Below, one piece after another: positions 7,196-42,272 of a stretch of 44,061 nt of DNA. The number at the start of each line of letters is the position of its first letter. Position 1 is the stretch's first letter. Source of the stretch: an uncultured Alphaproteobacteria bacterium (lineage in GTDB: Bacteria > Pseudomonadota > Alphaproteobacteria > RF32 > CAG-239); contig CALXUN010000013.1 in the NCBI GenBank assembly GCA_944391705.1, positions 1 to 44,061 on the forward strand, read 5' to 3'. The notes beneath the pieces are model-generated. The model was not told the DNA's origin. It did not search any database and saw nothing but the letters and a program-made list of their open reading frames with translations. The position numbers were made by a program, and so were the translations under genes.

Positions 7196-7269
7196 TATAA
7201 AAATATTTAAATTATATGTTTGATAAAATCATTTTAGTCATTTTGTGGATTTTGTCAACCATAAATAAA

Positions 7270-7299
7270 AAATCCCTGCTGTAAAGCGGGGATTTTTTA
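7270..7299. terminator. Terminator of the gene at 7304-7840
   Basis: The hairpin AATCCCTGCT-GTAA-AGCGGGGATT has A/T tracts on both sides. It lies between the two paralogues, so each has its own transcription unit or the upstream one is attenuated. Confidence 0.75.
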
Positions 7300-7303
7300 T
7301 TTT

Positions 7304-7840: not shown

Positions 7841-7969
7841 AATGATATATTTAAGTTAATAATTAATTTTGTCGTTATTTTATCTCTACGGAAGTTTTTG
7901 TCAATAAAAAAGTTTACAGGAGATTGTCTGAAACAAAACGAAAATTCGTTGAAAAATCTTAAAAAAAAC

Positions 7970-7997
7970 TTGCAATTTCCGTGTAATATGCTATCAA
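7970..7997 (+). promoter_or_regulatory. Predicted promoter of nifJ
   Basis: TTGCAA (7970-7975), 16 bases, then TATCAA (7992-7997). This would leave a leader of roughly 100 bases before nifJ. It is read by consensus only. Confidence 0.4.
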
Positions 7998-8029
7998 ACA
8001 GGCAGAATTTTATTTCTAAACCAGAAAGG

Positions 8030-8073
8030 CCGGGAGATCAGGCGTTAAACCGTCTTGAACGATGGCTTTTTTT
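8030..8073 (+). promoter_or_regulatory. Terminator-like hairpin in the nifJ leader
   Basis: The nifJ leader contains CCGTC-TTGAAC-GATGG (8050-8065) followed by CTTTTTTT. Upstream, the GGCC and GGC segments at about 8038-8043 could pair alternatively with GGC at 8064-8066. This resembles an intrinsic terminator or attenuator inside a 5' leader. It matches no riboswitch consensus I know. The stem is short and includes a G-U pair. Confidence 0.35.
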
Positions 8074-8107
8074 ATTTGTGTAACTTAAAACTTTTAAGGA
8101 TGCTTAA

Positions 8108-11100: not shown

Positions 11101-11668
11101 TATCAATATTCTGGTTATGGATACCGGTGTTTATTCCAACACCGGCGGTCAGCAGTCCAAAGCAACTCCGATGGGTGCATCGGCTAAATTCGCAACAGCC
11201 GGTAAGGCTTTGCCGAAAAAGGATTTAGGCTTAATCGCCATGTCTTACGGCAATGTTTATGTTGCTCAGGTTTCTTTTGGCGCGAACGATATGCAGCTGA
11301 TTAAAGCTTTAAACGAAGCGGAAGCTTATGACGGTCCGTCTATCGTTATTGCTTATTCTCACTGTATCGCTCAAGGGTTCAACCTTGCAGACGGTATTGA
11401 GCACCAGAAGAATGCGGTTGAAAGCGGTTCATGGCCGTTGTATCGGTATAATCCGGAAAACATCAAGGAAGGTAAAGCACCGTTGATGCTGGATTCTAAA
11501 GCACCGACAAAACCGCTGGCCGATTATATGTCTAACGAAACGCGTTTCCAGATTGTCCATAAGGCCAATCCGGAACGTTATGAAACGCTTTTGAATAAAG
11601 CGCAGGAAAACGTTAAGGAAAAACGCCAATTGTTAGAGCATATGGCAGAACTTAAAGTTGCCGAATAA
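8108..11668 (+). CDS. nifJ: Pyruvate:ferredoxin (flavodoxin) oxidoreductase, single chain
   Basis: Oxidatively decarboxylates pyruvate to acetyl-CoA and CO2 and passes electrons to ferredoxin or flavodoxin; it marks anaerobic metabolism. The 1186-residue chain has the full domain order. First comes the pyruvate-binding N-terminal domain (YPITPSSPMGEWADAW). Two [4Fe-4S] ferredoxin motifs follow near residues 697 (CIQCGKCSLVCP) and 753 (CTGCGICVSVCP). Next is the proximal cluster motif CAGCGETPYV near 826. The TPP/Mg site is GGDGWAYDIGFGG near 976, then NTGGQQSKATPMGASAKFA. SD AAGGA precedes the ATG. It is monocistronic, with a strong terminator downstream and a hairpin in its leader. No pyruvate dehydrogenase genes are seen in the window. 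Confidence 0.97.
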   Translation: MSDVKMKMMDGNEAAASVAHRMNEVCVIYPITPSSPMGEWADAWSAAKQKNLWGVVPEVQEMQSEAGAAGACHGSIQAGALTTTFTASQGLLLMIPNMYKIAGELSPFVMHVAARSLAYHALSIFGDHSDVMGCRQTGFAMLCSNSVQEAHDMAAIAQTSSLRSRVPFMHFFDGFRTSHEIKKIKVLSDDDLRAMLEGVDYSFNAKHALRPEKPVIRGTAQNPDVFFQGREAANPYYKKVEGIVQEEMDKFAKISGRQYHVVDYVGPEDAEEVIVIMGSGGETVEETIAYLNAKGGKFGVMKVHLYRPFPEESFLNVLPKSVKVVSVLDRTKESGATGEPLYLDVVATLSQAYANGKIASMPKIVGGRYGLSSKEFTPGMVKAVFDNGLSSHPINGFSVGITDDVSKTSLPYDDSIDTEPKDVVRAVFYGLGADGTVGANKNSIKIIAEDAGKYGQGYFVYDSRKSGSMTTSHLRFSDNPIKSAYLISKADFVACHQFPFMNKVDILKIAKPGATFLLNAPYAADEVWNHLPIEVQEEIIAKKLQFYTINAVEVARATGMGQRINTVMQTCFFAISNILPKDEAIAQIKAAIKKTYSKKGDAVVEKNFKAVDASLEHLHKVEYPSSVTSKFHRLPPVPADAPEFVKKLTGEIIADRGDQLPVSAFAEVVDGTWPTGTTQYEKRCIATEIPVWDQDTCIQCGKCSLVCPHGVIRMKVASNDELQGAPATFKSADYKGKEFAGKKFIWQISPEDCTGCGICVSVCPAKNKADPSRKAINMDHIENHLEAEKANWKFFEKLPYVKRTEVVKNLPKTTQLIRPLFEYSGACAGCGETPYVKLLTQLFGDRMVVANATGCSSIYSGNLPTTPYAKDEKGHGPAWANSLFEDNAEFGLGMRFSIDQQTAFAKTLLDGLKDKIGAELVEKILDNPQSTDAEIDAQRDNVKELRAKLSGISGEEAKHLNDLADYLIKKSVWILGGDGWAYDIGFGGLDHAIASGKNINILVMDTGVYSNTGGQQSKATPMGASAKFATAGKALPKKDLGLIAMSYGNVYVAQVSFGANDMQLIKALNEAEAYDGPSIVIAYSHCIAQGFNLADGIEHQKNAVESGSWPLYRYNPENIKEGKAPLMLDSKAPTKPLADYMSNETRFQIVHKANPERYETLLNKAQENVKEKRQLLEHMAELKVAE

Positions 11669-11678
11669 AAGCAATTTG

Positions 11679-11716
11679 AAAAAATCCCCCGTGTTCTTAG
11701 AACTCGGGGGATTTTT
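11679..11716. terminator. Bidirectional terminator between nifJ and the RelA/SpoT-like gene
   Basis: The stem AAAATCCCCCG/CGGGGGATTTTT has a 13-base loop. A and T tracts flank it on both strands, so it can end both converging genes. Confidence 0.9.
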
Positions 11717-11731
11717 ATAACAGATTTTTTA

Positions 11732-13123
11732 TTAATCTCTTTCTTTGGTGGTTGGAGCAATCGGAGAAATTTCCATGGATTCCAACCTTCTCCGGAACAG
11801 AATTTTACGCTGAACAACGGGCGCATAACGATGAGCAATTTCGTTGATGCCGTTGAAACGCTCTTTTTCGGCCGGGCTTAAGCGTGAAAATTTATAATTA
11901 ACAGTCTTGTATGCATTTTCATCGGTTTCGTCAAAATCGGAATCTATTTTACCGATCATCCTAAGAAAACAAAGTTTGTTAATTTCATTATCAGCGGAAA
12001 AAGCTGTTTGGGGATCAAAATCATCATATGATTCTACCAAATATTCTCTGCTGATGTGCTGGCGGCACTGATTGTATGTACCGTCAGTATTATCCGGTTC
12101 TATTCTGAGCGGACGATATCCGTCATCTTCAATTCTTCTGGCTTTGTCCAAAACCATCATATTATATTTATGTATGGCATTTTCATTGATTTTGCGAATA
12201 CGGTTGTTCAAAATTTTAATTTTGGCTTCTTGTTGGCGTATTTCCACAGGATCTGTGAAAGATCTTTCTCTGGCAAGTTTAGCTTCAATAGCTCGTACTT
12301 CTTCGTATATTTTATGTGTACGCAAATCTCCTTCATAAAGAGCCTGAATTTTCAACTGAACCTCAACATTTAAATTTCTGCCTCCTTTTTGCTGGTGCAT
12401 AATCATTTTGATGTCATAGTATCTTTTTTCATTTTTGCTTAAAGGAAGGGAAAACCTGTTCCTGGTTTCATTTTCATTAATAAAAAAGATGTCCTGTCCC
12501 CGGTTTTCGCTGATAACGCGGTAAATTCTTTCCACGCCGGAAAGATATTTGCTGGTAATGGTCAGGCGCAAGATATCATTGAGTTTTGTGTTACCCTGGG
12601 GAATATCTTGAATTCTTTCACAGAAAGCTTCACGGTCCTCTTGTTCAAAATAGGCATCCAGAGCTTTTTGCATGGATTTTACATAATCTTTGTTGTATTT
12701 GCTTTCGAGTTTTTCAATTGCTCTTGAAGCTTGTTTCATGCGCGGAAAAATAACATATATCGGGTTATTAAATTTATCGACATATTCCAGACGTGTGCAG
12801 GTAAAAGGGGTCACGGCTTTAAGTCCGTAGTCTATCGGTTTACCGTTGCCGTCACGTTCAATTTTTCCGGTTTTTGGGTCAAATGCACAGGTTCTGTCCG
12901 GCCTTTTGAAACTTTCGTATAAGGCACGATATATCTCGCGGTAAACGCCCATACCGTCTGAATAAAAGTCAATCAGATAATTGCGATCCTGCGAGGTAAT
13001 ACGATGCCCTTCATAGGCTTTTTCGATAAGCTCCAAATTTTCGGCATTAATTGTTTCCTGAATGCGATCAATTTCTTCAGTTGGTAAATTTACAATTTTT
13101 TTGACTTCGTATTCCTCTTCCAT
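11732..13123 (-). CDS. Predicted RelA/SpoT-like nucleotidyltransferase without hydrolase domain
   Basis: The 463-residue protein is divergent, but its middle carries the ordered elements of the (p)ppGpp-synthetase fold. These are an Arg/Lys ATP-site motif PRMKQASRAIEKLESKY (about residues 127-143), the metal-binding Asp in KLNDILRLTI (D183), the aromatic block KRYYDIKMIM (Y235/Y236), and the Glu strand NVEVQLKI (E254) followed by THKIYEEVR. No HD hydrolase, TGS or ACT region is visible. The 120-residue N-terminus and helical C-terminus are unfamiliar. I start at the ATG at 13123 (SD AAAGGATG), because the TTG at 13147 would fall at the predicted transcription start. It could be an alarmone synthetase or a relative with another target, such as a toxSAS-type toxin. 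Confidence 0.6.
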   Translation of the reverse strand: MEEEYEVKKIVNLPTEEIDRIQETINAENLELIEKAYEGHRITSQDRNYLIDFYSDGMGVYREIYRALYESFKRPDRTCAFDPKTGKIERDGNGKPIDYGLKAVTPFTCTRLEYVDKFNNPIYVIFPRMKQASRAIEKLESKYNKDYVKSMQKALDAYFEQEDREAFCERIQDIPQGNTKLNDILRLTITSKYLSGVERIYRVISENRGQDIFFINENETRNRFSLPLSKNEKRYYDIKMIMHQQKGGRNLNVEVQLKIQALYEGDLRTHKIYEEVRAIEAKLARERSFTDPVEIRQQEAKIKILNNRIRKINENAIHKYNMMVLDKARRIEDDGYRPLRIEPDNTDGTYNQCRQHISREYLVESYDDFDPQTAFSADNEINKLCFLRMIGKIDSDFDETDENAYKTVNYKFSRLSPAEKERFNGINEIAHRYAPVVQRKILFRRRLESMEISPIAPTTKERD

Positions 13124-13154
13124 TTTTCCATCCTTTATTTTGTCCAACTTCTAA

Positions 13155-13183
13155 AATATGACACAAATTGTCGATTTTGGCAA
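13155..13183 (-). promoter_or_regulatory. Predicted promoter of the RelA/SpoT-like gene
   Basis: On the minus strand, TTGCCA (13178-13183), a 17-base spacer, and CATATT (13155-13160) lie 30-60 bases upstream of the ATG at 13123. The placement supports that start. Confidence 0.5.
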
Positions 13184-13189
13184 GAACTT

Positions 13190-13221
13190 TTTTAAAAAAA
13201 ATCCCCGGTTATGGCCGGGGA
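13190..13221 (-). terminator. Terminator of the helical-repeat gene
   Basis: On the minus strand, the stem CCCCGG/CCGGGG is followed by ATTTTTTTT. It lies just below the stop of the gene that ends at 13233. Confidence 0.8.
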
Positions 13222-13232
13222 ACTTCTTGAAA

Positions 13233-14411
13233 TCAGTACATCCACTTTTGGCAGTATGTTTGAACTGCCTTAAGAAGACTGCGGTTTAACAAAATTTGTA
13301 CAGCTTCCGGACATGGTTTTTTCCAGATGATATATTCCGTTATTTCATCCTCATTTCCGTTATTCATCAGGAAAATTTCCAGTTCTTTGAGCGTTTCAGG
13401 CATGTTTTCACGTTGCAGACAAAAAGCAATTTCAACGTAATTGCGACGGGGAACTCTTTCGTCGCAGTTGATGGTATCCGATAAGATGTTTTCGCCTTTG
13501 CCGTTTTCATTAACGCCGAAAGCAGAGAGCAGGGATTTTACATCTTTGCATTTCCATGAGATGTAAAACATAATCAAGTCATGGTTTCCCCGCTTAAGCA
13601 GGGCTTTCTCGCCTTCAAAGGATAAATAGCGGTGTGTCCGGATATATTGCCGGATTTCCGCTTCCGAACGGGTGTTAATCATTTCGGCATGAACTTCATT
13701 CCAAAGTCCCCATTTTTCAATGTAGAAAAGGAAATCAGCCTTTGATCCGATACGGCACATCAGTAATTGTCCCAATATCGAAAATTCATGTAAAGCAACA
13801 CAGTGTTTAAATAATTCGCTGTTTTTGCTTTCCAGAACATCTTTTTCCCAGCCGGGGTGCATTCCGTGACGGGTAATGTGCAAGTCTATTTCTTCCTGAT
13901 TGCCGTCAGCACGGAGCTGATCCTGAATTTCGGGAAGAAAACCATGGCGGGAAAGGTAACGCATGCGTTGTGCATGTGTGGATGCGGCATAAAACTTGCG
14001 TTGTCCGGCAAGTCCAAACCCCTGATAGCTGATGTAAGCATCAATTTCTTCATCATTACAGCGTGACGCAATGATTTCCTGAACTTCATCAGGCAGGATG
14101 TGTTCGTTGCGATACGGATTACACCATTTATGCAAGTCCCATCCCGGAGTTGGAGCGGCCTTGCCGTATTGATGAATCATGAAAAGCAGTTCATCATGAT
14201 TACCACGACGGGCAATTCCAATTGCCTCCAAAGCATCGAGAGCACTTACATGCCAACTATGGCAATAGCCGTTAATGTAGAAATAGCTGTTTTCACATCC
14301 TTTGACATCTGAAAGTTTTTTCATGATGTCGAGATGCGTTTGAAGCTCGGCTTCCAAAGCCTCGTTCCGAAGATTTTTAGTTTCCATAATATCAATAAAA
14401 TTAGAAGACAA
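13233..14411 (-). CDS. Helical-repeat protein with about 26-residue units, unknown function
   Basis: This 392-residue protein is soluble, with no signal peptide. It contains a recurring unit of the form xGNxDEIxxYIxxxG. Copies begin near residues 69 (RGNHDELLFMIHQYG), 117 (RCNDEEIDAYISYQG), 169 (DGNQEEIDLHITRHG), 221 (IGSKADFLFYIEKWG), 247 (TRSEAEIRQYIRTHR), 274 (RGNHDLIMFYISWKC) and 351 (NGNEDEITEYIIWKK). The gaps are close to multiples of 26, so weaker units probably fill the spaces. This suggests an alpha-solenoid used for protein binding. The start is uncertain: neither the ATG at 14411 nor the in-frame ATG at 14387 has a clear SD. It may be a cytosolic scaffold or an effector; nothing in the sequence decides this. 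Confidence 0.7.
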   Translation of the reverse strand: MSSNFIDIMETKNLRNEALEAELQTHLDIMKKLSDVKGCENSYFYINGYCHSWHVSALDALEAIGIARRGNHDELLFMIHQYGKAAPTPGWDLHKWCNPYRNEHILPDEVQEIIASRCNDEEIDAYISYQGFGLAGQRKFYAASTHAQRMRYLSRHGFLPEIQDQLRADGNQEEIDLHITRHGMHPGWEKDVLESKNSELFKHCVALHEFSILGQLLMCRIGSKADFLFYIEKWGLWNEVHAEMINTRSEAEIRQYIRTHRYLSFEGEKALLKRGNHDLIMFYISWKCKDVKSLLSAFGVNENGKGENILSDTINCDERVPRRNYVEIAFCLQRENMPETLKELEIFLMNNGNEDEITEYIIWKKPCPEAVQILLNRSLLKAVQTYCQKWMY

Positions 14412-31106: not shown

Positions 31107-31427
31107 ATGGCTGAAAATAAGGCTTCGTCAGGATCTAAAAGCAGGTATGATATCTTACAAAATGACAAAGGGGAAATTCTCATTATTATTCAACAACGCG
31201 GCGGCGGGGCTGAAAATCCGCTGTTTGTGTATGATGGTTCTCAATATGCTTTGTTATACCGCAGCCATGAAAGTACGGTTTATTTTGATGATATCGTGGA
31301 AGGTGCCCGCTTACCTTTGAAATCGGTTACAACTTTGCAGATTGTCGAAATTGATGATGATGAAGTGGTGCGGGAATATGCCGTGCCGGTCAGAATCGTA
31401 AAAGATGTCAAAGCCTTGATGGATTAA
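31107..31427 (+). CDS. Small unknown protein upstream of the nuo-like genes
   Basis: The 106-residue soluble protein opens MAENKASSGSKSRYDILQND. It reads as a single small beta-rich domain: GEILIIIQQRGGGAENPLF, then YALLYRSHESTVYF and REYAVPVRIVKDVKALMD. No family is recognised. I start at the ATG at 31107 (GAGG upstream), not at 31089. A terminator separates it from the NuoL-like gene, so it is probably its own unit. Confidence 0.7.
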   Translation: MAENKASSGSKSRYDILQNDKGEILIIIQQRGGGAENPLFVYDGSQYALLYRSHESTVYFDDIVEGARLPLKSVTTLQIVEIDDDEVVREYAVPVRIVKDVKALMD

Positions 31428-31447
31428 ACCGCTTTTTTTGCTTGTTT

Positions 31448-31470
31448 CAGGGGCTGTAACGCCCCTTTTT
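31448..31470 (+). terminator. Terminator before the NuoL-like gene
   Basis: GGGGC-TGTAAC-GCCCC is followed by TTTTT. It ends the small gene and leaves only about 13 bases before the NuoL-like start, so the nuo-like operon must be read through it or start close by. Confidence 0.8.
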
Positions 31471-31483
31471 AGTGAGTTTTTAT

Positions 31484-33151
31484 ATGATTGCAAATATTGT
31501 TCTGGTTTTGTTGATACTTGGTATTTTTCCTCTGTGGAAATTACGCCGGCGGTATGATAATATCATTGTCAGTATTTCTTTTTTGCTTGTTTCTGCTTTG
31601 TTTTTTTACTTTATCCGAAGTTGGCAAACCGGAACGGAAAGCTCTTTTTTAATGTTGTGGGACAGCTCGGCAAGCGGTGATATCAAAATTAGTGTTAATT
31701 CGACTTTGTTGAACTATGCTGTTATTTTCCCCTTTTTTGTCGTGGCTGTCGTTTCTTTGTTTAATAATCTGTTTTTTCGTTATGAAAAAAAGAAAAGAGC
31801 TTTTTCATCTTTAATCATTTTAATGCTGGTTTCTTTTATTATGCTGATTTCGGGGGATAATTTTATCCAGGTCATAACTTTTGTATTTGTTATTGATATT
31901 TTAAGCCAGATACTTATCCAGGATGTATATGCAGGCCGCCGTTACGGTATTTATAATCTGGCGGCAGATATGGGATTGTTTCTTGTTTTTGCTTTGATGC
32001 ACGGCAAGCTTCAAAACTTAGATATGGAATCGCTGGCGGAATATCCGAGTTTGGGAAATTACCAAATTTTGATGGCGGCAGTCGTTTTGATAAGTTTACT
32101 GATTAAATTCGGATTTTTTATTTTTCACAGTTATCTTCTTGATTTGAAAAGTGCCAGGTTTCACCGTCTGATTTTGATACCATATCTGTCAACACCGGCA
32201 GTATCGTTAATTCTTCTCTTTAAGATGAGGTCTTATCTTGTTGAATATGAAGTATTTTGTTTTATATTTAACCTGCTCCTGATGTTGACTGTCTTATGGG
32301 GGGCTGCCGGTGCGGTTATTATGAAAAATTTAAAGGAAAAATCGATATATTTCAGCATGATGATTATGGCGGTTTTGGCTAAACTGGCTGAAACGGGAAC
32401 GACATGGAATCTTTCTTTTTCCTGGCTTTTTATCTGCGGTTTTTTATTTAATATCTGCATATATTATCTTCATTATTACACGAATCGGGAAAATGCCGTT
32501 GTCTTTTCCGGCTGCCGGACCGGGTGCGGTTTATTGGCCAAATATGTTGTTTTGGCTGCATCCGTAATGGTAACGGCAGCTTTTATTTTAACCCTGTTTT
32601 CTTTTCGTACGGAAATAAATTCAGTATGGATCTGGGGATACAGCTTTTTGTTTTTGCTTGCCGGAGCAAATATGTTTAGTCAGCAGTTGCAGGAAAATAC
32701 ACTTTCACTGTTTACCCGCATGCAAGACTATCGTCCGTTGCCGGTTTTAATCTTGACGGCAGTTTTATCGTTCATCGCGGTTTATGATGTATATCCGATA
32801 TGGCAGCCGGGAGTTTGGAGCATCATTTTGTTTGCACTTTTATTGTGGCTGAAACCGGTTCGACGTGTTTTAAAAGATCAATATTGTGATAGTCTGCAAA
32901 AAGCTGATTTCTTTTCCGGTTTTTATAACGCGGTTATTGCCCGGCCGGTAAAGTTTGTCGGACGTATTTTAACCCTTTTGGTTGATTTTGTTTTTTTGGA
33001 AAAGACTTTAGTATCAACGGTTATGCTTTCAGCCGGTATCATTATCCGGAGTTTCCGCCAGATTAACCGGGAAGGGGCTTTGCGTTATTTTTTGTTCGTT
33101 TTGACAAGCTTTTTGATTCTGGCTGTTTTTTTCTTAAGGAGTAGGATTTAA
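31484..33151 (+). CDS. nuoL: Divergent NuoL-like antiporter subunit of complex I
   Basis: This 555-residue polytopic protein has about 15 hydrophobic segments. NuoL is assigned from fold layout, the C-terminal block FLEKTLVSTVMLSAGIII...R, and position before NuoM- and NuoN-like genes, birA and rnj. The TM5 block aligns ungapped with NuoL (DNLLLMYLGWEGVGLCSYLL against DNFIQVITFVFVIDILSQIL); the essential Glu144 is Phe135 here. The TM7 lysine is kept (K208, LLIKFGFFIFH). Genes nuoA-nuoK are not upstream; a terminator and unrelated gene are. The ATG at 31484 is chosen over GTG at 31472. Its final A overlaps the next ATG. Confidence 0.65.
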   Translation: MIANIVLVLLILGIFPLWKLRRRYDNIIVSISFLLVSALFFYFIRSWQTGTESSFLMLWDSSASGDIKISVNSTLLNYAVIFPFFVVAVVSLFNNLFFRYEKKKRAFSSLIILMLVSFIMLISGDNFIQVITFVFVIDILSQILIQDVYAGRRYGIYNLAADMGLFLVFALMHGKLQNLDMESLAEYPSLGNYQILMAAVVLISLLIKFGFFIFHSYLLDLKSARFHRLILIPYLSTPAVSLILLFKMRSYLVEYEVFCFIFNLLLMLTVLWGAAGAVIMKNLKEKSIYFSMMIMAVLAKLAETGTTWNLSFSWLFICGFLFNICIYYLHYYTNRENAVVFSGCRTGCGLLAKYVVLAASVMVTAAFILTLFSFRTEINSVWIWGYSFLFLLAGANMFSQQLQENTLSLFTRMQDYRPLPVLILTAVLSFIAVYDVYPIWQPGVWSIILFALLLWLKPVRRVLKDQYCDSLQKADFFSGFYNAVIARPVKFVGRILTLLVDFVFLEKTLVSTVMLSAGIIIRSFRQINREGALRYFLFVLTSFLILAVFFLRSRI

Positions 33152-34572
33152 TGGCTGAAAACCTTTTGCTTATTATTATTTTTTTGCCGCTGTTCGGGAG
33201 TTTGTTTGTTGCATTTTCCCGTGACGATGATGCCGGCGTTTCGCGTAATGCCGCCAATGTTTCTGTCTGGATTGTCTGTTGTAATATTTTGCTTATTTTA
33301 CGACTGTTTTCCTTAATTGATGTTAATCTGGATGCCATACAGGTTTTTGGGCGTATTCCCTGGCCGATTGCGCCAGGCGGAAGTCTGACGTTTGGTGCAG
33401 ATGTTTTGGCCTTGCTGATTGTTTTGGGTATTCATGTCGCATTATTGTTGGGAATTTTCGGACTTAAAGATGTAAAAGAAAGCCAAAAAGGCATTTTGTT
33501 TTCAAGTCTGTTGTTCTTAAGCGCGGCCGGAGGCTTTTTTTTGGCGGCGGATTTGTTTGCCTTTTATATCTTTTTTGTTTTGATGATTTTGCCTTTGTTC
33601 GTGCAAATCGGTTTAAGCAACGGTTCCGGTCAAAAAACGGCTTCCCGTTTCTTTTTATACAATATATTGGGCGCTTTTTTGTTTTTGATTTCTGTTGCAG
33701 CACTTTATGCGGCAAAAAACGATGCCATTATGATTGATCATATTTCAGATATTCAAATGCCCCGGAAAGCCGGAATATTCATTTGGAGCGGAGTTTTCTT
33801 AGCCTTTGTTTTAAGGCTTCCGGTATGGCCGTTTCATTACTGGATAAGTTCGGTTAATACGGCATTAAAAAATCCGCTGGTTTTTACAAGCGTCAGTCTG
33901 ATGCCGGTTTCCGGATTGTATGGTTTTATTCGTTTCTGGCCGGCCGTGGTGCCGGAAGAAATTTCTTCTTTCGTGCCGGTTTTTGAATTTTTATGCGTTC
34001 TGACGATGCTTTATCTTGCTTTCAGCGGTTATAGTTCGACCAGTTCGCGGGATAAATTGTTTTCATATATTTTCATTTATTATCTGTTATATCTTTTGGG
34101 CGTGTTCTCGCCGACCGATGTGCTGCAACGCAATATTGCCTATTCGATGTTTGCTTTTTTGCTGGTTTCTGCGGCAATGATTATGATTGTTTTTTATATT
34201 GATCGCGAAAGCGAAAAACTGCAGAATTCACCCAACGGCATTCTCTGCCTTCAACCTAAGGCTGCTCTGGCTTATGCTCTTTTAATTCTGGCCGGAGCCG
34301 GGTTCCCGGTATCGGCGCTTTTCTGGAATAATTTCGTTATTGTTTCCGAAATTTTAAATACGGATGTCTATATCGGAACAACGGCGGTTTTTACCATGTT
34401 GCTGACGGCTGTTTTTCAGTTGCAAAACTTATACGATCTGCGTGATAAATCCTGTCTTTTGCCCGGTCAGGAAAAAATACGGGATATTGATAATTTGCGT
34501 TTTGCTGCCGGAACAATTATTGTGATGGTGCTTTTTCTGTCTTTTATCAAGCCTTTGTGGTTTGTTTATTAA
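33151..34572 (+). CDS. nuoM: Divergent NuoM-like antiporter subunit of complex I
   Basis: The 473-residue membrane protein has about 14 helices and is the clearest of the three. Canonical NuoM has a TM5 FFWEMMLVPM; this protein has IFFVLMILPL, so the proton-channel Glu144 is Val143. TM7 reads FVLRLPVWPFHYWI against FAVKMPVVPLHGWL, so the key Lys is Arg222, and the following LPDAH..AP becomes ISSVNTALKN. The frame is intact, without stops or frameshifts, which argues for selection on the altered protein. It starts at the end of the NuoL-like gene and is followed 16 bases later by the NuoN-like gene. Confidence 0.75.
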   Translation: MAENLLLIIIFLPLFGSLFVAFSRDDDAGVSRNAANVSVWIVCCNILLILRLFSLIDVNLDAIQVFGRIPWPIAPGGSLTFGADVLALLIVLGIHVALLLGIFGLKDVKESQKGILFSSLLFLSAAGGFFLAADLFAFYIFFVLMILPLFVQIGLSNGSGQKTASRFFLYNILGAFLFLISVAALYAAKNDAIMIDHISDIQMPRKAGIFIWSGVFLAFVLRLPVWPFHYWISSVNTALKNPLVFTSVSLMPVSGLYGFIRFWPAVVPEEISSFVPVFEFLCVLTMLYLAFSGYSSTSSRDKLFSYIFIYYLLYLLGVFSPTDVLQRNIAYSMFAFLLVSAAMIMIVFYIDRESEKLQNSPNGILCLQPKAALAYALLILAGAGFPVSALFWNNFVIVSEILNTDVYIGTTAVFTMLLTAVFQLQNLYDLRDKSCLLPGQEKIRDIDNLRFAAGTIIVMVLFLSFIKPLWFVY

Positions 34573-34588
34573 TTGAAGGAAACTGACA

Positions 34589-35992
34589 ATGAGTGGAATG
34601 TTTGGACTTTTGAACATGTTTGCCTTATTTGCCGGTATGCTCTGGCTCGGTATACAACGGGTTTGGGGCGGCTTTTCGGCTAAAGATTATTTTTTAACAG
34701 CCAAAATTTCAGTTGTTGCCAGCATTGTATTTTCTCTGCTGATTAAGGAAGAAAATTGGGCAATCCCGTATTTTTCAGCCAATGTGCCGTCAATTTGGAC
34801 TTTTGTTTTAACGGCAGGGGTCGTGTATTTGTGGTTGGTTCTATCCTTAAAATGGTTTGTTGTCGAGGATTTACCGGCTTGTCTTTTTTGTTTTTTGTCC
34901 TTGGCTGCTTTATTATGCTGTCATACAATTGCCTCAACGGTTAATTTCGGGGTTTTGTTCGGGGCTATGGCGGTTTTGGCGCTGATTAATTATTTGTTTT
35001 TGTACTTAAGCCAGCAGACGGAAGAGCTGCATAATATCAGCAGCCGGTATGGTTTAAGTGTTTTGTTTTTTATTTTTTTGGCGGCGTTGTCATTATATTT
35101 TCTTACTCCCGAAAATTGGGATTTACAGCATTCGGCAGGAGCAGCAGCTGCCGCCGGAACGCTTAAAACGTATTTTATTCTGGCCGGAATTTTATTTATC
35201 TTTTTATTTATGCTGGCTGTTGCTCCGCTGCATTTCTGGTTTACCGATACGATTGCGCCGGCGGTGCTTCCGGTGGCGTTTTATTTTAGTCTGGTACCCC
35301 AAATATCTTTATGGACGGCTTTTATTAAAGTTAATTTACAGGTTTTGCGGCCGCTGATGGATAATCTTGATGCCATGTATCTTGTTTTGGGCGTTTTATC
35401 GGTGTTTGTCGGTGCAATCGGTGCCAACACCAGCCGCAATTTGAAAAAAATATTTGCCTGCAGCGGCATATATAATCTGGGCGTTATGCTTTTGACAACA
35501 GCGTCATTTACTGATAAGTCCGTTTTTGCCGGTCTGGTTTATATGCAGGTGTATATATTGGCGCTTGCCGGGATTTATACGGTTTTTTACGGATTCAAAA
35601 GCCGCGGCGATTATTTATACAATTTAAATATGATAGGAGGCTTTGCCAAAGTTCGTCCGTTTGCAGCCGGTGCTTTGTTGTTTTTTATGGCATCTTTAGC
35701 CGGTTTGGCGCCGCTTCCGGGATTTTGGGTAATCTGGGCGGCAATGGGCGGCTTTGCCCATACCGCGCGTTTTGGGCTGACGGCGGTTGTTTTGGGCGGA
35801 ATGTTGTTGTTAATTCCGGCCTATCTCCAAGTTGTCAGAGCGGTTTGCTTTAGTAAGAAAAATACAAATTTTGACCGGACGGAAAACAGTATTTATGCCA
35901 TTTTGGTGTTTTTAACGGTCTTGATTTTGCTTTTGGTCTGCCGGCCGCAATTGCTGGACATACAAATGCAATGGGCAGCTTTGGCGGGGTAG
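34589..35992 (+). CDS. nuoN: Divergent NuoN-like antiporter subunit of complex I
   Basis: This 467-residue polytopic protein is identified as NuoN-like by the TM7-TM8 region and by the birA-rnj genes that follow, the usual alphaproteobacterial neighbours. Aligned by hand, FKLSLVPFHLWTPDVY is FMLAVAPLHFWFTDTI, so the TM7 Lys is Met208. The TM8 Lys (ATASKI) is Gln238 (SLVPQI), and the TM5 Glu (IGIELIS) is Met127 (GAMAVL). All main protonatable channel residues are therefore replaced. SD GAAGGA precedes the ATG. The start of birA follows the stop by 3 bases. Confidence 0.7.
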   Translation: MSGMFGLLNMFALFAGMLWLGIQRVWGGFSAKDYFLTAKISVVASIVFSLLIKEENWAIPYFSANVPSIWTFVLTAGVVYLWLVLSLKWFVVEDLPACLFCFLSLAALLCCHTIASTVNFGVLFGAMAVLALINYLFLYLSQQTEELHNISSRYGLSVLFFIFLAALSLYFLTPENWDLQHSAGAAAAAGTLKTYFILAGILFIFLFMLAVAPLHFWFTDTIAPAVLPVAFYFSLVPQISLWTAFIKVNLQVLRPLMDNLDAMYLVLGVLSVFVGAIGANTSRNLKKIFACSGIYNLGVMLLTTASFTDKSVFAGLVYMQVYILALAGIYTVFYGFKSRGDYLYNLNMIGGFAKVRPFAAGALLFFMASLAGLAPLPGFWVIWAAMGGFAHTARFGLTAVVLGGMLLLIPAYLQVVRAVCFSKKNTNFDRTENSIYAILVFLTVLILLLVCRPQLLDIQMQWAALAG

Positions 35993-35995
35993 AAA

Positions 35996-36721
35996 ATGGA
36001 AAAAATCGGTATGTGGACGTGGCTTGATTTGGCTGAAACCGACAGTACCAACAATGCGGCAGATAAATTGTGTGCCGAAACAAACTGTCCGTGTATTGTA
36101 ACGGCAAAGCGCCAAACGGCGGGCAGGGGACGGCGCGGCCGCAGCTGGATAAGCGATGAAGGAAATTTGTTTATGTCGTTTGCTTTTCCGGCAGAACTTG
36201 ACAACATCGGTCAAATTGCGGTTTTAAGCGGGTTGGCAGTGTTAAAAACCGTGCGAGCCTTCTGCCCTGATGTTTCCCTTCTGCTCAAATGGCCGAATGA
36301 TGTTTTGGCCGATGGGGCGAAAATTTCGGGGATTTTATTTGAACGTGCCCGAAACGGTTTTTGGATTATGGGTATCGGTATTAATGTCGTATCACATCCG
36401 GAAACGGCGGCGGCCGGTTACCGGACTGCAGGGTTGAATGCGCTCGGAGCAGCAACCGACCGGCTAAAAGTTTTGCATAAATTTGTTGTTATATGGGATG
36501 AAATGATATTTTCCTGGCGGCAAGAAGGTTTTAATGCTTTTAAGCGGCAATGGCTTGACAACGCATATAATCTTGGTAAAACAATAATTGTTAAACAAGG
36601 GGATAAAGAAATAAGCGGCATATTGTCCGGCTTAAATGACGATGGCAGCCTGCAGCTTGAGATTGCAGGGAAAATGCATAAAATTCTGGCCGGCGATGTT
36701 TTTGCCCTTAAAGAGGAATAA
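35996..36721 (+). CDS. birA: Biotin--[acetyl-CoA-carboxylase] ligase
   Basis: Activates biotin as biotinyl-AMP and attaches it to the carrier protein of biotin-dependent carboxylases. The 241-residue protein shows TDSTNNAADKL, the biotinyl-AMP loop TAGRGRRGRSWIS, LLKWPNDVLADGAKISGIL, and a C-terminal beta-barrel (GDKEISGILSGLNDDGSLQL). It lacks the N-terminal winged helix, so it is an enzyme only and not the biotin-operon repressor. It lies between the NuoN-like gene and rnj, a common alphaproteobacterial order from which coaX appears to be missing here. Confidence 0.93.
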   Translation: MEKIGMWTWLDLAETDSTNNAADKLCAETNCPCIVTAKRQTAGRGRRGRSWISDEGNLFMSFAFPAELDNIGQIAVLSGLAVLKTVRAFCPDVSLLLKWPNDVLADGAKISGILFERARNGFWIMGIGINVVSHPETAAAGYRTAGLNALGAATDRLKVLHKFVVIWDEMIFSWRQEGFNAFKRQWLDNAYNLGKTIIVKQGDKEISGILSGLNDDGSLQLEIAGKMHKILAGDVFALKEE

Positions 36722-36723
36722 AG

Positions 36724-38382
36724 ATGAAGAAGAAAAACAAGAATGGAATTTATTTTCTGCCGCTGGGCGGCGCCGATGAAATCGGCATGAACATGTATGC
36801 ATACGGCGTGAACGGCAAATGGATTGTGATTGATGCCGGATACGGTTTTTTAAATGACGATTATCCGGGAATGGATATGTGTTATGCTTCACCGGCGTTT
36901 TTGGAGGAGCTTAGAGAAGATGTGCTGGGGCTGTTTATTACCCACGGTCATGAAGACCATATGGGTGCAATTGCGCAAATCTGGCCGGCACTGCAATGTC
37001 CGGTTTATGCCACGCCTTTTGCCGCCGGATTGATGAAAGAACGCTTAAAAGAATATAATCTCGAAAATGCCGTGGATATCAATAAAGTTCAAACGGGTTC
37101 TGAGATAACGGCCGGCGATTTTATGGTTAAATTTGTGCCGCTGGTGCATTCGGTGCCGGAAACCTGCGGGCTTTTTATCCGTACGCCGTTTGGCAATGTT
37201 TTTCATGCCACTGACTGGCGATTTGATGACGGATGTATCAAGATGCTGCCGACCGGCACGGAAGAGCTTAAAGCAGCCGGAAAAGCCGGGATTGATATGT
37301 TTGTGTGCGATTCGACCAATGTCATGCTTGACAAACCCCAGCCGAGCGAAAGTATGGTGCGAAAAAAGCTGTTGGAGCTTATTCCCAGTATAAAGGGCGG
37401 GTTAATCGTTACCTGCTTTTCATCCAACCTGATGCGGCTGGAAACCCTGATTATGGCGGCAGACCTTGCCGGACGCACGCCGGTTTTAATCGGCAAAAGC
37501 CTGATAAGCAATGTCAAGCTTGCCAAAGAGTGCGGTTATTTTCAAGATTTGCCTAATGTTCATACTCCCGAGCAGGTACAGGGCATTACCGCCGACAAGG
37601 CGCTTTATATCTGTACCGGATCGCAGGCCAATTACCGCAGCGCTTTAAGCTCAATTGTCAAGGGCGAGAGCAAATATGTTAAATTGGATAAAAACGATAC
37701 GATTATTTTTTCTTCCAAGATTATTCCCGGTAATGAAGAAAAAATCGAGCGTATGCAGGAGCTGATGATTGACCAGGGGGTTACGGTCATCACCAATGAA
37801 ACGGAGCTGGTGCATACTTCGGGACATCCGTCCAAAGAAGAATTAAAGAAAATGTATAAAATCTTAAAACCGAAAATTGTTTTTCCGGTGCACGGTGACA
37901 AGCGCTTTATCCGCGAACACAAACGTTTTGCCTTAAGCTGCGGTATCAAAGAGGTTTGTTCGGGGCAAAACGGGGATATGTTCTTTTTACAAAACGGTCA
38001 AATCATTAAAACCGAAGAGGTGGCCTCAGACGTTATCGGCGTTGACCGCGGGCGGGCGGTTGCCTTAAGTTCGGATTTGGTACATAACCGGCGCCGTATC
38101 GCATATAATTGCAGCTTGTTTATCAGCGCAGTCATCAGCCGCGATAACCGGGTGGAAGATTTGGAAATTTCTTCAATTGATATTTTGGAAGAAAAAGCAT
38201 GGGAAGAGCTTTCCGGGGAAATTAAAGAAAAAGTTATTCCGCTGATTGAGGAAAAACTTCATAACTTCGGCGGGGCCAATGCCGCAGCAAAAGAATTTAT
38301 CCGCAGCCGCATCCGTAAAATGGTTTACAAAGCAACGGATGTCAAGCCGGTAACGTTTTGCCATATTTATCAGGAAAAATAA
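36724..38382 (+). CDS. rnj: Ribonuclease J
   Basis: A 5'-to-3' exo- and endoribonuclease of the metallo-beta-lactamase/beta-CASP family, used in mRNA decay and RNA maturation. The 552 residues match the family length. Motifs: LPLGGADEIGMNMYAYG, the zinc site THGHEDHMGAI (H74, H76, D78, H79), HSVPETCGLFI, FHATDWRFD, the beta-CASP VTCFSSNLMRL, HTSGHPSKEEL, FPVHGDKRFIREH, and a C-terminal domain. It starts 2 bases after birA in one operon. Confidence 0.95.
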   Translation: MKKKNKNGIYFLPLGGADEIGMNMYAYGVNGKWIVIDAGYGFLNDDYPGMDMCYASPAFLEELREDVLGLFITHGHEDHMGAIAQIWPALQCPVYATPFAAGLMKERLKEYNLENAVDINKVQTGSEITAGDFMVKFVPLVHSVPETCGLFIRTPFGNVFHATDWRFDDGCIKMLPTGTEELKAAGKAGIDMFVCDSTNVMLDKPQPSESMVRKKLLELIPSIKGGLIVTCFSSNLMRLETLIMAADLAGRTPVLIGKSLISNVKLAKECGYFQDLPNVHTPEQVQGITADKALYICTGSQANYRSALSSIVKGESKYVKLDKNDTIIFSSKIIPGNEEKIERMQELMIDQGVTVITNETELVHTSGHPSKEELKKMYKILKPKIVFPVHGDKRFIREHKRFALSCGIKEVCSGQNGDMFFLQNGQIIKTEEVASDVIGVDRGRAVALSSDLVHNRRRIAYNCSLFISAVISRDNRVEDLEISSIDILEEKAWEELSGEIKEKVIPLIEEKLHNFGGANAAAKEFIRSRIRKMVYKATDVKPVTFCHIYQEK

Positions 38383-39743: not shown

Positions 39744-39875
39744 AAAATATTAAGTTATGTATGCTATTGTGTCGATTATTGGAAAGTTTGAAAAGATTTT
39801 TCATCACTTTGGTATGCCTTAAAAACTTTTTTGTTTTTCATTTTAAATCGAATAATAATAAAAAAAATAAAGATT

Positions 39876-42272
39876 ATGGCAAAGACAAGAAATTTCTTCA
39901 TCATGGCGATAGTTATGATGTTGACAGCTACTTTTATGGTAAGCTGCGAAGATAGCACGTTCCTCGGCATTGAGGAACCGGAGTTCGTAAAAAATGAGGA
40001 GCCTAACGGTGACAACGGTTATCGTTACAACGTTGACCTGACGATGGAATTTGATACAGTTTCCATGAAGCTGTATACAGTTCGTCAAACCATTGAGGGT
40101 GTGCGTAACATTCTTGAATACGGCGATACTCTTGCTGTTGAAGAGTTTGCACGCGATCTCAACTTAGAGGTGAACTTTAGCCTGACACCTTCCATGGTGT
40201 ACGTGGCTGAAAAAACACTCCTTAACGATGTACTGTGCAGTGATACAGTGGTATCTGTGGTTTCTGAAACCGAAGATCAGGATGATGAATTCTGCACCAT
40301 TAACAAGGAGCAGAACTATACATTCAAATTCAACGGTAACGAAACCGTCGAAGCTGCTGCCGTATGGCAGGCACTTCGTTGTGAAGTTGCTGACACTACC
40401 TTTGCATGTGTAGAAGTTAAGAACGTTGCTTACGATTCTTTCGAGGCAACTCTTAATGAAGCAATATCTAACGCCGATTCAACGGTGTATGATGTTGATC
40501 TCCGCTTTAATGTGGAGCTTGCATGCAGCGAAATGAGCTGGGACAGCACATACGTTGTCCGCGTTCCGGAAATCCGTATCTATAAGAACGGATATGTTCC
40601 AGAAGTGCCGGATGAGTATGAAACAAAGATCGAAAACAGTGATTATCGCGCTGCTTTCGAAACTGCAACTCTGTCTCTCGTGACAGACTTCCAGACCGTT
40701 TCAGGTGACATTGTTACCTATAAGAACGATGTTGAAGAAGTTAGCCGCGAGAACTTCGCGAAGGATTTGAATCTTCAGGCATTGTTTACAGCACCTGAAA
40801 GGGTGTATGTCAATAATGAAGCTCAACTCTCGCACGTTTCTTTGGCAGGATCATCACATGGTGGTGACCGTGTTTCAAGAGACGCTGACGGTCGTTTTAC
40901 CACTGCTACTTCAGCAATGGATTATAACTTCCGTTTCAATGAGGGTGAGAATGTTGTTGCTGCAACCGAGTATCAGTATCTCTCTTACGGGGATACAACT
41001 TTTGTATACTCAGCAATCCAGGACATCAACTTTAACAGAGTTGAGGTTTCTGAAAATGCTGCAGCCAGCAATGACGAGCTTCAGGTTGTAAACGTAACCC
41101 TCTACTTTGATGTAGAGGTCGTACGCGAAGACCCTGAAGATATCACGACCCGCGCAACCAGCGCGCCGGAGGTTTATGAAGTTGCCGTTCCTTACGAACG
41201 CGCCCTTCGTATTGAAGCCCCGACTGATGAGTTGACCGGAAAGACGTACAGAGATGTAACCCGTGAAATCGTTGACGCTAATACGGAGCGTATTTCATGG
41301 ACAGAAGTTGAAACTTGGTCAGTATCGGGAGAGAAGACCAATACCATCAGCTTCAATCTGTATCGTCACTTGACGAGCCCTGCTATGCAGACCGTGTACA
41401 CGGCTAATGACCAGTACAACACTGTAAGCAATGGTTCGCGCCTCGTTCGTGAAAACGAAAGCGTAAACGGAAATTGGACGGTGACAACCCGCTATATGCA
41501 GTATACTTCTACTGCTTCTAACGGCGTTAATCCTTTCAATAATGTTTACTCTTACGATTATCAGAAAGCTGTCTATACAGATGAGTACTACACTCTGACG
41601 TTTGAGTACGCTAACTGGACAATCAACGAGGGATCTTCTAATGTTACTGCTGCCGGTGAACAAACTGTTAGCGGTGTTGTTTACAACGTTTCAAACTACG
41701 TCAACAACATCAATACGGTTTATGCCGTTTCTTCTGACAGTTACGATGCATCTGCCAGCGCAGAAGCCCGTATCTATGTTGAGAAGGAAATTGATAAGAT
41801 TATTCCGGATAACTGGGGTAAGATTATCGGTGCCGGTATCAGCGCAGTGCCTACTGATCCTAACGGAGAATCAGCACAGAAATGTCTGACTATCCGTACG
41901 GATAAGGGAGCAGTAGCTGTGACCTTCTCCATGAACGCCGATATGCCGAGCGTATCAAGCATTCTTTCAGGATACTTCGTTGAAGGTAACTTCGGCGCAG
42001 AGTACAACTCTGGATACTACACCACATCTGCTAACCATGGGTCTTATGACCTTGGCAGATGGGCTCCGGCCATTGCAAAGGATGAGGCTGACAGAATTTC
42101 GTACTTTAATGGTAACACTAAAGTACGAGTTATCAGACACTCCACCCTTTCAATGTGGAACTGGAGAGATGGTAACATGTCAACAGTTGTTGACGGTTAC
42201 GAGTTCTCCGTATCAGACAACGGTGTTCTGACTATTACCGTTGACGGAAATGTTGTTATGCAGATCCGTTAA
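39876..42272 (+). CDS. Large lipoprotein of Bacteroidales type with tandem domain repeats
   Basis: The protein is about 798 residues. The signal MAKTRNFFIMAIVMMLTATF runs into MVSC, with Cys24 as the lipidation site followed by acidic residues, as in exported Bacteroidetes lipoproteins. Two homologous units of about 200 residues follow: one contains YGDTLAVEEFARDLNLEVNF, FKFNGNETVEAAAVW and ADTTFACVEV; the other VSRENFAKDLNLQALF, FRFNEGENVVAATEY and GDTTFVYSAI. A Thr/Ser/Asn/Tyr-rich C-terminal half follows. Start is the ATG at 39876; its upstream AATAAAGATT has no SD, unlike the neighbours. Surface or adhesin-type role is inference. Confidence 0.75.
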   Translation: MAKTRNFFIMAIVMMLTATFMVSCEDSTFLGIEEPEFVKNEEPNGDNGYRYNVDLTMEFDTVSMKLYTVRQTIEGVRNILEYGDTLAVEEFARDLNLEVNFSLTPSMVYVAEKTLLNDVLCSDTVVSVVSETEDQDDEFCTINKEQNYTFKFNGNETVEAAAVWQALRCEVADTTFACVEVKNVAYDSFEATLNEAISNADSTVYDVDLRFNVELACSEMSWDSTYVVRVPEIRIYKNGYVPEVPDEYETKIENSDYRAAFETATLSLVTDFQTVSGDIVTYKNDVEEVSRENFAKDLNLQALFTAPERVYVNNEAQLSHVSLAGSSHGGDRVSRDADGRFTTATSAMDYNFRFNEGENVVAATEYQYLSYGDTTFVYSAIQDINFNRVEVSENAAASNDELQVVNVTLYFDVEVVREDPEDITTRATSAPEVYEVAVPYERALRIEAPTDELTGKTYRDVTREIVDANTERISWTEVETWSVSGEKTNTISFNLYRHLTSPAMQTVYTANDQYNTVSNGSRLVRENESVNGNWTVTTRYMQYTSTASNGVNPFNNVYSYDYQKAVYTDEYYTLTFEYANWTINEGSSNVTAAGEQTVSGVVYNVSNYVNNINTVYAVSSDSYDASASAEARIYVEKEIDKIIPDNWGKIIGAGISAVPTDPNGESAQKCLTIRTDKGAVAVTFSMNADMPSVSSILSGYFVEGNFGAEYNSGYYTTSANHGSYDLGRWAPAIAKDEADRISYFNGNTKVRVIRHSTLSMWNWRDGNMSTVVDGYEFSVSDNGVLTITVDGNVVMQIR

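What the first reader, a model, noticed from the sequence alone, without database searches (positions are those of the whole stretch)
31484..35992. Intact NuoL/M/N homologues have lost the proton-channel residues
At the conserved nuoLMN-birA-rnj locus, all three antiporter-like subunits keep full length and membrane topology but replace the charged residues that define proton pumping. By hand alignment to E. coli: the TM5 Glu is Phe135 (NuoL), Val143 (NuoM) and Met127 (NuoN); the TM7 Lys is Arg222 (NuoM) and Met208 (NuoN); the TM8 Lys is Gln238 (NuoN). Only the NuoL TM7 Lys (K208) is clearly retained. nuoA-K are not upstream. The three open frames suggest selection for a non-pumping, structural or repurposed membrane arm, fitting a fermentative PFOR lifestyle.
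Basis: partly seen in the sequence, partly recalled or inferred. Interest (0 to 1): 0.82.

Follow-up and report, generated by a model that had tools for sequence, protein, structure and literature searches.

The report
Pump-dead orphan complex I membrane arm
A large family of gut bacteria has thrown away almost all of respiratory complex I but still keeps, under strong selection, its three big membrane "proton pump" proteins with most pumping residues rewritten, which points to a new job for a very well studied machine.

Summary
Window 31484-35992 encodes NuoL, NuoM and NuoN orthologues in a gut alphaproteobacterial family (GTDB CAG-239/RF32, names recalled). NuoB, NuoD, NuoH and NuoK are each undetected in 31 of 31 sampled family genomes, NuoD in 153 of 154 order genomes. 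Yet a NuoM-like gene persists in 142 of 153 family genomes; at 89 distinct loci NuoL lies with it in 88 and NuoN in 89. NuoM's relay is uniformly rewritten: TM7 Lys to Arg, TM8 Lys to hydrophobic, TM12 Glu to Asn, each 89/89. NuoN has lost TM7 Lys (84/86) and TM8 Lys (85/86). NuoL has lost TM5 Glu (83/83) and TM8 His (82/83) but keeps TM6 Asp/Glu (83/83) and TM7 Lys (81/83). Median dN/dS is 0.04-0.11. Two genera lack all three genes at the locus. Best reading: an L-M-N unit detached from redox chemistry, unable to pump canonically, kept for a changed function that remains unknown. A residual ion pathway is not excluded. Nine literature searches showed no prior report in their listings.

The parts
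31484..33151 (+). nuoL orthologue (555 aa from ATG 31484; GTG 31472 gives 559 aa). By my count of the model's helices about 16 TM helices plus the long lateral helix HL (480-533, GTG numbering). TM5 Glu -> Phe139, nearby Asp142, TM6 Asp166 and TM7 Lys212 kept, TM8 His -> Pro237
   Evidence: profile-profile: NuoL 99.5% against NuoM 93.8% and NuoN 94.3%, hhalign, AlphaFold pLDDT 83.2 and Foldseek hits to NuoL chains of complex I at E ~1e-13, TM 0.6-0.7 with large rmsd; no relevant Pfam/NCBIfam match alone
33151..34572 (+). nuoM orthologue (473 aa): TM5 Glu -> Val143, TM7 Lys -> Arg222, TM8 Lys -> Val253, TM12 Glu -> Asn394; His229, Asp84, Asp134, Arg261, Lys302 kept
   Evidence: Pfam PF00361 1e-18, NCBIfam TIGR01972 150.8 bits, below its 263.8 cut-off, AlphaFold pLDDT 85.6 and top Foldseek hit Paracoccus NuoM TM 0.87, residue counts
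34589..35992 (+). nuoN orthologue (467 aa): TM5 Glu -> Ala128, TM7 Lys -> Met208, TM8 Lys -> Gln238, TM12 Lys -> Ile382; His215 kept
   Evidence: Pfam PF00361 8e-18, TIGR01770 112.2 bits, below its 332.6 cut-off, profile match, residue counts
31110..31427 (+). orf112 (105 aa counted from GCT after the ATG at 31107): small conserved protein of unknown family, upstream neighbour at 22 of 26 family loci; stays behind in genomes that lack nuoLMN, so probably not a subunit
31449..31466 (+). terminator-like hairpin between orf112 and nuoL; a similar hairpin is in 48 of 75 family gaps. The window's gap itself lacks the -10-like and DnaA-box-like motifs seen in 32 and 27 of the 75
   Evidence: the consensus scan as a whole found no more terminators than shuffles (10 against 11.9)
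35996..36721 (+). birA (biotin-protein ligase), syntenic downstream marker
36724..38382 (+). rnj (ribonuclease J), syntenic downstream marker

Best explanation
The locus encodes the distal membrane arm of respiratory complex I (NuoL-NuoM-NuoN), kept as a free-standing three-protein unit after the electron-transfer arm and the proximal membrane subunits were lost. Shown: the three proteins are orthologues of L, M and N; the driver subunits tested (B, D, H, K) are undetectable; the genes are under purifying selection across the family and are absent together in two genera. Shown at sequence level: the Lys/Glu/His relay needed for canonical proton transport is broken in every subunit, and in NuoM it is replaced by a fixed new set (Arg in TM7, a hydrophobic residue in TM8, Asn in TM12). 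Inferred: the complex no longer pumps protons; it assembles in the old order, NuoL still clamping M and N with its lateral helix; and its re-wired core, centred on NuoM, does a different non-redox membrane task, most likely passive or gradient-driven movement of an ion or small solute. The substrate is not inferred with any strength.
For: Orthology: each family profile matches its own reference subunit best (NuoM 1e-52, NuoN 4e-58, NuoL 3e-22) and the matching chains in the PDB. Drivers undetected: NuoH, NuoD, NuoB and NuoK each 0 of 31 family genomes, with controls ringing in 11, 11, 11 and 13 of 14; NuoD in 1 of 154 order genomes. Retention: NuoM-like profile in 142 of 153 family genomes, 105 of 110 good-quality genomes of the order. 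Axis: NuoM Arg at K234 89/89, hydrophobic at K265 89/89, Asn at E407 89/89; NuoN K217 kept 2/86, K247 1/86; NuoL E144 kept 0/83, H254 1/83, K342 0/83. Selection: median dN/dS 0.11, 0.04 and 0.08 for L, M and N, against 0.115 for birA and 0.147 for rnj (12, 15, 22, 27 and 77 pairs). Unit: L, M and N all missing at a locus with its neighbours in place in two genera, 4 genomes, with no PF00361 or NuoM-profile match elsewhere in them. Core still constrained: mean majority-residue frequency 0.77 in TM5 and 0.74 in TM8 of NuoM against 0.58 overall; HL of NuoL 0.46 against 0.41, with P492, D505 and E510 at 95% or more. Published background: isolated antiporter modules conduct protons, with ion pairs and Lys/His/Glu residues central (PMC13220270, Introduction read).
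Against: No functional measurement. NuoL keeps TM6 Asp/Glu and TM7 Lys and often an Asp near the lost TM5 Glu; 54 of 89 NuoM keep the TM5 Glu (not this window's genus); 41 of 86 NuoN have Lys or Arg at TM12. The E. coli NuoM E407K variant still pumps at reduced stoichiometry (PMC9271201 abstract), and E133 of NuoN was reported not to matter as E144 of L and M does (PMC3046159 passage), so single losses do not prove loss of pumping. In NuoL and NuoN other conserved charges are lost about as often as axis charges; selective loss is clear only in NuoM. The dN/dS pairs are few; in the only 2 pairs usable for all five genes, NuoL and NuoN (0.06-0.10) lie above rnj (0.02-0.06) and near birA (0.08-0.17). 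Assembly of the three proteins was not predicted as a complex. HL conservation is only modestly above the NuoL mean. NuoL Foldseek matches have TM 0.6-0.7 and rmsd 5-16. A NuoL profile was not searched genome-wide.
Confidence: 0.6

Rival explanations
1. It is still an ion or proton translocator, a stripped-down Mrp-like antiporter or channel, using a partly different set of titratable residues (NuoL D142/D166/K212, NuoM Glu in TM5 where present, H229, NuoN H215) and an ion gradient as driver.
For: NuoL TM6 acid 83/83 and TM7 Lys 81/83, Asp three residues after the lost Glu 51/83; NuoM TM5 Glu 54/89 and H241 equivalent 88/89; F-type ATPase a-subunit present in G000, so a gradient may exist to couple to; MrpD structures are among the Foldseek hits.
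Against: The TM8 and TM12 residues are lost in M, TM7 and TM8 in N, TM8 His and the K342/H334/H338 group in L. Arg is not expected to release a proton as Lys does (general knowledge). No Mrp accessory genes beside nuoLMN in the window; their genome-wide absence was not tested.
Confidence: 0.2
2. A purely structural scaffold: L-M-N holds or positions another membrane or soluble enzyme and has no transport path at all.
For: Most channel charges are gone while fold and HL are kept.
Against: In NuoM the most conserved parts are core helices, and the replacements R222 and N394 are invariant in 89 loci. No candidate client: presence of L-M-N does not follow Rnf, PF01512 proteins or [FeFe]-hydrogenase, and orf112 persists without it.
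Confidence: 0.15
3. Decaying relic kept by chance or by its position in front of birA-rnj.
For: The lineage is losing complex I; two genera lack the genes altogether; 11 of 153 family genomes show no NuoM, six of these being below 90% complete.
Against: Median dN/dS 0.04-0.11; only 2 of the listed NuoM matches hold a stop and all but 7 of 142 genomes have a near full-length match; 27 NuoM positions at 98% or more identity in 89 loci. Position does not explain protein-level constraint.
Confidence: 0.03
4. A full but highly diverged complex I, its other subunits unrecognised elsewhere in the genome.
For: The sister-family genome G031 carries strongly diverged nuoA, B, C, D, H, J, K, so divergence can be large.
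Against: The same searches find those diverged G031 subunits (D 120.4 bits, B 48.9, K 55.8, H 46.8) but nothing in 31 of 31 family genomes.
Confidence: 0.02

Closest known systems
Respiratory complex I membrane arm (NuoL/M/N, ND5/ND4/ND2)
   Same: Orthologous subunits; gene order L-M-N then birA as in the alphaproteobacterial reference L064 (rnj lies beyond that stretch); fold (TM 0.87 for M); HL lateral helix in the NuoL model.
   Different: No NuoB/D/H/K detected, no nuoA-K at the locus, most axis Lys/Glu/His residues replaced.
Mrp (CPA3) Na+/H+ antiporter, MrpA and MrpD
   Same: PF00361 fold; works without redox subunits (recalled); MrpD structures among the Foldseek hits.
   Different: Sequence is closer to NuoM/N/L; no small Mrp subunit genes between or beside nuoLMN in the window; axis lysines lost.
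Ech/MBH/FHL group 4 membrane hydrogenases and 11-subunit complex I-like enzymes
   Same: Complex I-related membrane modules in anaerobes (recalled).
   Different: Those keep NuoB/D/H homologues (recalled); none was detected here.
DAB inorganic-carbon complexes (DabB is PF00361)
   Same: An antiporter-like subunit working without complex I (PMC13144422, search listing only); DabB2 is a weak PDB hit to the NuoN profile.
   Different: None of the scanned neighbours is a DabA (DabA itself was not searched for); three NuoL/M/N orthologues instead of one DabB.

Membership tests
Respiratory complex I | NuoL, NuoM and NuoN orthologues | tested here: met
Respiratory complex I | Q-module and proximal membrane subunits (NuoB, NuoD, NuoH, NuoK) | tested here: not met
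   0 of 31 family genomes each
Respiratory complex I | NADH module (NuoF type, PF01512) | tested here: not met
   absent from G000; 21 of 31 family genomes carry a PF01512 protein, by ORF length of RnfC or HydB type (my inference)
Respiratory complex I | conserved TM5 Glu, TM7 Lys, TM8 Lys/His, TM12 Lys/Glu axis | tested here: not met
   TM7 Lys of NuoL is the clear exception, and TM5 Glu of NuoM (54/89) and TM12 Lys/Arg of NuoN (41/86) are kept in part of the family
Respiratory complex I | proton pumping | not testable with these tools
   inferred lost
Mrp antiporter | MrpA-MrpD pair with small MrpB, C, E, F, G subunits | tested here: inconclusive
   no such genes between or beside nuoLMN in the window; no genome-wide search of the accessory subunits was run
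Mrp antiporter | sequence closest to MrpD/MrpA | tested here: not met
   PDB profiles rank NuoM/N/L chains first, NCBIfam ranks NuoM and NuoN first
Mrp antiporter | cation/H+ exchange | not testable with these tools
   none
Group 4 membrane-bound hydrogenase | [NiFe] large subunit (PF00346 relative) and NuoB-like small subunit | tested here: not met
   [NiFe] large-subunit family models themselves were not searched

The most novel reading that the evidence does not exclude
A new kind of non-redox membrane machine: a free NuoL-M-N heterotrimer, derived from complex I, whose central subunit has exchanged the Lys/Lys/Glu proton relay for an invariant Arg/hydrophobic/Asn core and now moves or senses something other than protons, retained across 13 of 16 sampled genera of a gut alphaproteobacterial family.
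Probability: 0.4. Interest if true: 0.85.

Novelty: new variant of a known kind. Interest (0 to 1): 0.72.

Why it matters
How the complex I membrane arm couples, and what each charged residue is for, is still debated. Here evolution has run an experiment: the arm is detached from redox chemistry, its axis residues are replaced in a largely fixed way, and it is nevertheless kept under selection in well over a hundred species (142 genomes, one per species). That gives a natural separation-of-function set for the antiporter fold (fold and HL kept, proton relay broken), testable with the isolated-module assay that already exists (PMC13220270). It also shows a possible route by which a respiratory complex is taken apart during the switch to fermentation, with a partly dismantled operon in the sister family.

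Tried and rejected
A partner gene was looked for by presence/absence: L-M-N does not follow [FeFe]-hydrogenase, PF01512 proteins or Rnf (of 18 family genomes 9 have the RnfD/E type; 8 have both it and L-M-N, 7 have L-M-N without it, 1 has it without L-M-N, 2 have neither). orf112 was considered as a subunit and rejected: it belongs to a family with 1-5 copies in the 9 genomes searched and stays where L-M-N is missing. That axis charges are lost selectively holds for NuoM (0.20 kept at 8 axis columns against 0.48 at 12 others) but not for NuoL (0.24 at 8 against 0.25 at 11) or NuoN (0.27 at 5 against 0.18 at 9) (the axis sets were chosen by me). dN/dS rests on few pairs because most species are too far apart (2 pairs usable for all five genes; pairs at or below 60% identity were dropped). 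NuoL K399 cannot be aligned reliably (gap, mixed residues). NuoL reference HMMs score only 17 of 26 family NuoL sequences, 15 best by NuoL and 2 by NuoN, and not the window's; its assignment rests on profile-profile comparison, gene order and structure. Of 106 loci examined, 17 were dropped (duplicates by NuoM, or no NuoM found); sequences cut by contig edges or under a length limit were left out of the residue counts for L and N. Model coordinates could not be read, so no axis geometry was measured; NuoN and the complex were not modelled. Literature: 9 searches showed no report of a NuoL-M-N-only locus in the rows listed; several listings were cut (20 of 29, 15 of 309, 12 of 30, 12 of 788, 12 of 86 papers), one search returned nothing, and the 7 papers with the word nuoLMN were seen as a listing only. 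The library is open-licence only. PMC12361115 (passages) has a general class of 'incomplete' complex I; PMC4967309 (passages) treats the hydrogenases of Azospirillum sp. CAG:239 and shows no mention of this locus in the passages seen; PMC8357420 gave no passage for the residues asked.
Full report
What is in the window. Three ORFs on the + strand, 31484-33151, 33151-34572 and 34589-35992, lie between a small ORF (orf112) and birA-rnj. NuoM and NuoN match Pfam PF00361; NuoL alone matches nothing relevant in Pfam or NCBIfam. Profile-profile comparison of 26 family sequences with 14-18 references places each protein with its own subunit: NuoL 99.5% (E 3e-22), NuoM 100% (1e-52), NuoN 100% (4e-58). 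AlphaFold models of NuoM (pLDDT 85.6) and NuoL (83.2) find complex I subunits first in the PDB: Paracoccus NuoM with TM 0.87; NuoL chains of E. coli and of an alphaproteobacterial supercomplex at E about 1e-13, with TM only 0.6-0.7 and large rmsd. The NuoL model keeps a long helix (residues 480-533) in the place of the lateral helix HL, and a final helix.

The organism. The genome (G000, 1.49 Mb, 100% complete) belongs to a family whose loci include Azospirillum sp. CAG:239 scaffold 10 (L098, the same 8058-base contig length as G011:C10) and many MAGs, some with titles that name rumen, cecum, colon or rectum of ruminants. The GTDB names CAG-239 and RF32 are recalled. G000 has PFOR (window 8108-11668), one [FeFe]-hydrogenase hit and an F-type ATPase a-subunit, no Rnf of the PF03116 type and no PF01512 protein.

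The rest of complex I is missing. PF00146 (NuoH), PF00346 (NuoD), PF01058 (NuoB) and PF00420 (NuoK) give no match in any of 31 family genomes, while the same searches ring in 21 or 22 of the 24 other genomes and in 11-13 of 14 controls. Over the order, NuoD is found in 1 of 154 genomes. That one, G031, is the only member held of a sister family. There orf112 is followed by diverged nuoA, B, C, D, H, J, K, a shortened M and N, then birA and rnj, with no E, F, G, I or L seen at the locus (J by position and size only). Its NuoB keeps four Cys that align with those of E. coli; its NuoM keeps TM5 Glu and TM7 Lys; its NuoN keeps TM5 Glu, TM7 Lys and TM12 Lys; but the TM8 Lys is lost in both. It is 79% complete with runs of N, so absences there are weak. 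It looks like an intermediate of dismantling, or a parallel one.

L-M-N is kept. A family NuoM profile matches 142 of 153 family genomes plus G031; among genomes of the order at least 90% complete and at most 5% contaminated, 105 of 110; 14 of 17 genera of the order, that is 13 of 16 in the family. Two matches hold one stop, and 7 of the 142 genomes have only partial matches. Of the 11 family genomes without it, 5 are of good quality. In four of these (G007 and G021 of one genus, G015 and G028 of another) the locus was read: orf112, birA and rnj are in place and L, M and N are not there (in G015 an unrelated 284-aa ORF sits in the gap). PF00361 and the NuoM profile find nothing elsewhere in these four; a NuoL profile was not searched genome-wide. 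So the genes are absent as a unit in two genera, most simply by two losses. The fifth, G119, was not read. In the 89 distinct loci read, NuoL is present in 88 (2 cut by a contig edge) and NuoN in 89 (2 cut).

The axis. In 89 distinct loci out of 106 examined: NuoM K234 is Arg in 89 of 89, K265 is Leu/Ile/Val/Met in 89 of 89, E407 is Asn in 89 of 89, E144 is kept in 54 of 89 (Val in this window), the H241 equivalent in 88 of 89, R273 and D135 in 89 of 89. NuoL (83 sequences): E144 lost in 83, H254 kept in 1, K342, H334 and H338 lost in 83, D178 acidic in 83, K229 kept in 81; an Asp three residues after the lost Glu in 51. NuoN (86): K217 kept in 2, K247 in 1, E133 in 3% (rounded), K395 Lys in 26 and Arg in 15, H224 kept in 85. 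Axis charges are kept less often than other conserved charges in NuoM (0.20 against 0.48) but not in NuoL or NuoN. Published work supports the meaning of these residues: isolated modules conduct protons, and their ion pairs and Lys/His/Glu residues are central to this (PMC13220270, Introduction). But E407K in E. coli NuoM still pumps at reduced stoichiometry (PMC9271201, abstract), and mutating E133 of NuoN did not affect function as E144 changes in L and M did (PMC3046159, passage). It is the combination that argues against pumping.

Selection. dN/dS (Nei-Gojobori, pairs above 60% identity with dS 0.05-1.5): medians NuoL 0.11 (12 pairs), NuoM 0.04 (15), NuoN 0.08 (22), birA 0.115 (27), rnj 0.147 (77). 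In the 2 pairs usable for all five genes: NuoL 0.062 and 0.091, NuoM 0.022 and 0.012, NuoN 0.080 and 0.099, birA 0.170 and 0.079, rnj 0.055 and 0.023. In NuoM 27 positions are at least 98% identical across 89 loci, including R222 and N394, and TM5 and TM8 are the best conserved helices. Decay would not leave this, and mere scaffolding would not be expected to. In NuoL the best conserved parts are TM5-TM8 and HL.

Transcription. In the window a terminator-like hairpin (31449-31466) separates orf112 from nuoL (the scan found 10 such sites against 11.9 in shuffles, so by itself it is not evidence). Of 75 family loci with the two genes adjacent, 48 have such a hairpin in the gap, 32 a TTGTTAWAWT motif and 27 a TTATNCACA (DnaA-box-like) motif, against a background of 0.066 TTATNCACA per kb (the loci are related, not independent). 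The window's own gap has the hairpin only. So L-M-N may have its own start in part of the family.

Interpretation. Shown: orthology, absence of the tested drivers, retention and joint absence under purifying selection, fixed rewriting of the NuoM core. Inferred: assembly as a trimer, loss of canonical pumping, a changed membrane task. The residual charges in NuoL leave an ion pathway open (rival 1). No partner was found: L-M-N does not follow hydrogenase, PF01512 or Rnf.

Novelty. Nine literature searches showed no report of a NuoL-M-N-only locus or of this family's rewritten axis in the rows listed; several listings were cut and only an open-licence library was searched. Because NuoL has no family match and NuoM and NuoN fall below the NCBIfam cut-offs, routine annotation could miss or misname it. 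I class it as a new variant of a known kind.

Noticed in passing
L056 (G031 C81:6000-23175), 6677-13560: Sister-family genome with a partly dismantled complex I operon (A, B, C, D, H, J, K, shortened M, N; no E, F, G, I, L seen at the locus), NuoH shortened, the HPxxH loop region of NuoD altered, NuoB cysteines kept.
   Followed up: partly
gap between orf112 and nuoL in family loci (window 31427-31484): DnaA-box-like TTATNCACA in 27 of 75 gaps, terminator-like hairpin in 48 of 75 and -10-like motif in 32 of 75; the box is well above its background density. The window's own gap has the hairpin only.
   Followed up: partly
window 31110-31427: orf112: a family of about 100-aa proteins without Pfam match, 1-5 copies in the 9 genomes searched, one copy beside nuoLMN in 22 of 26 family loci.
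   Followed up: partly
G052 C70:3000-13000 (L081): Another alphaproteobacterium has an [FeFe]-hydrogenase gene next to NuoL-, NuoH-, NuoB- and NuoD-like genes, perhaps a membrane-bound complex I-like hydrogenase with an [FeFe] head.
   Followed up: no
window 39831-42272: 813-aa ORF without any NCBIfam match at E 0.01; Pfam was not tried.
   Followed up: no
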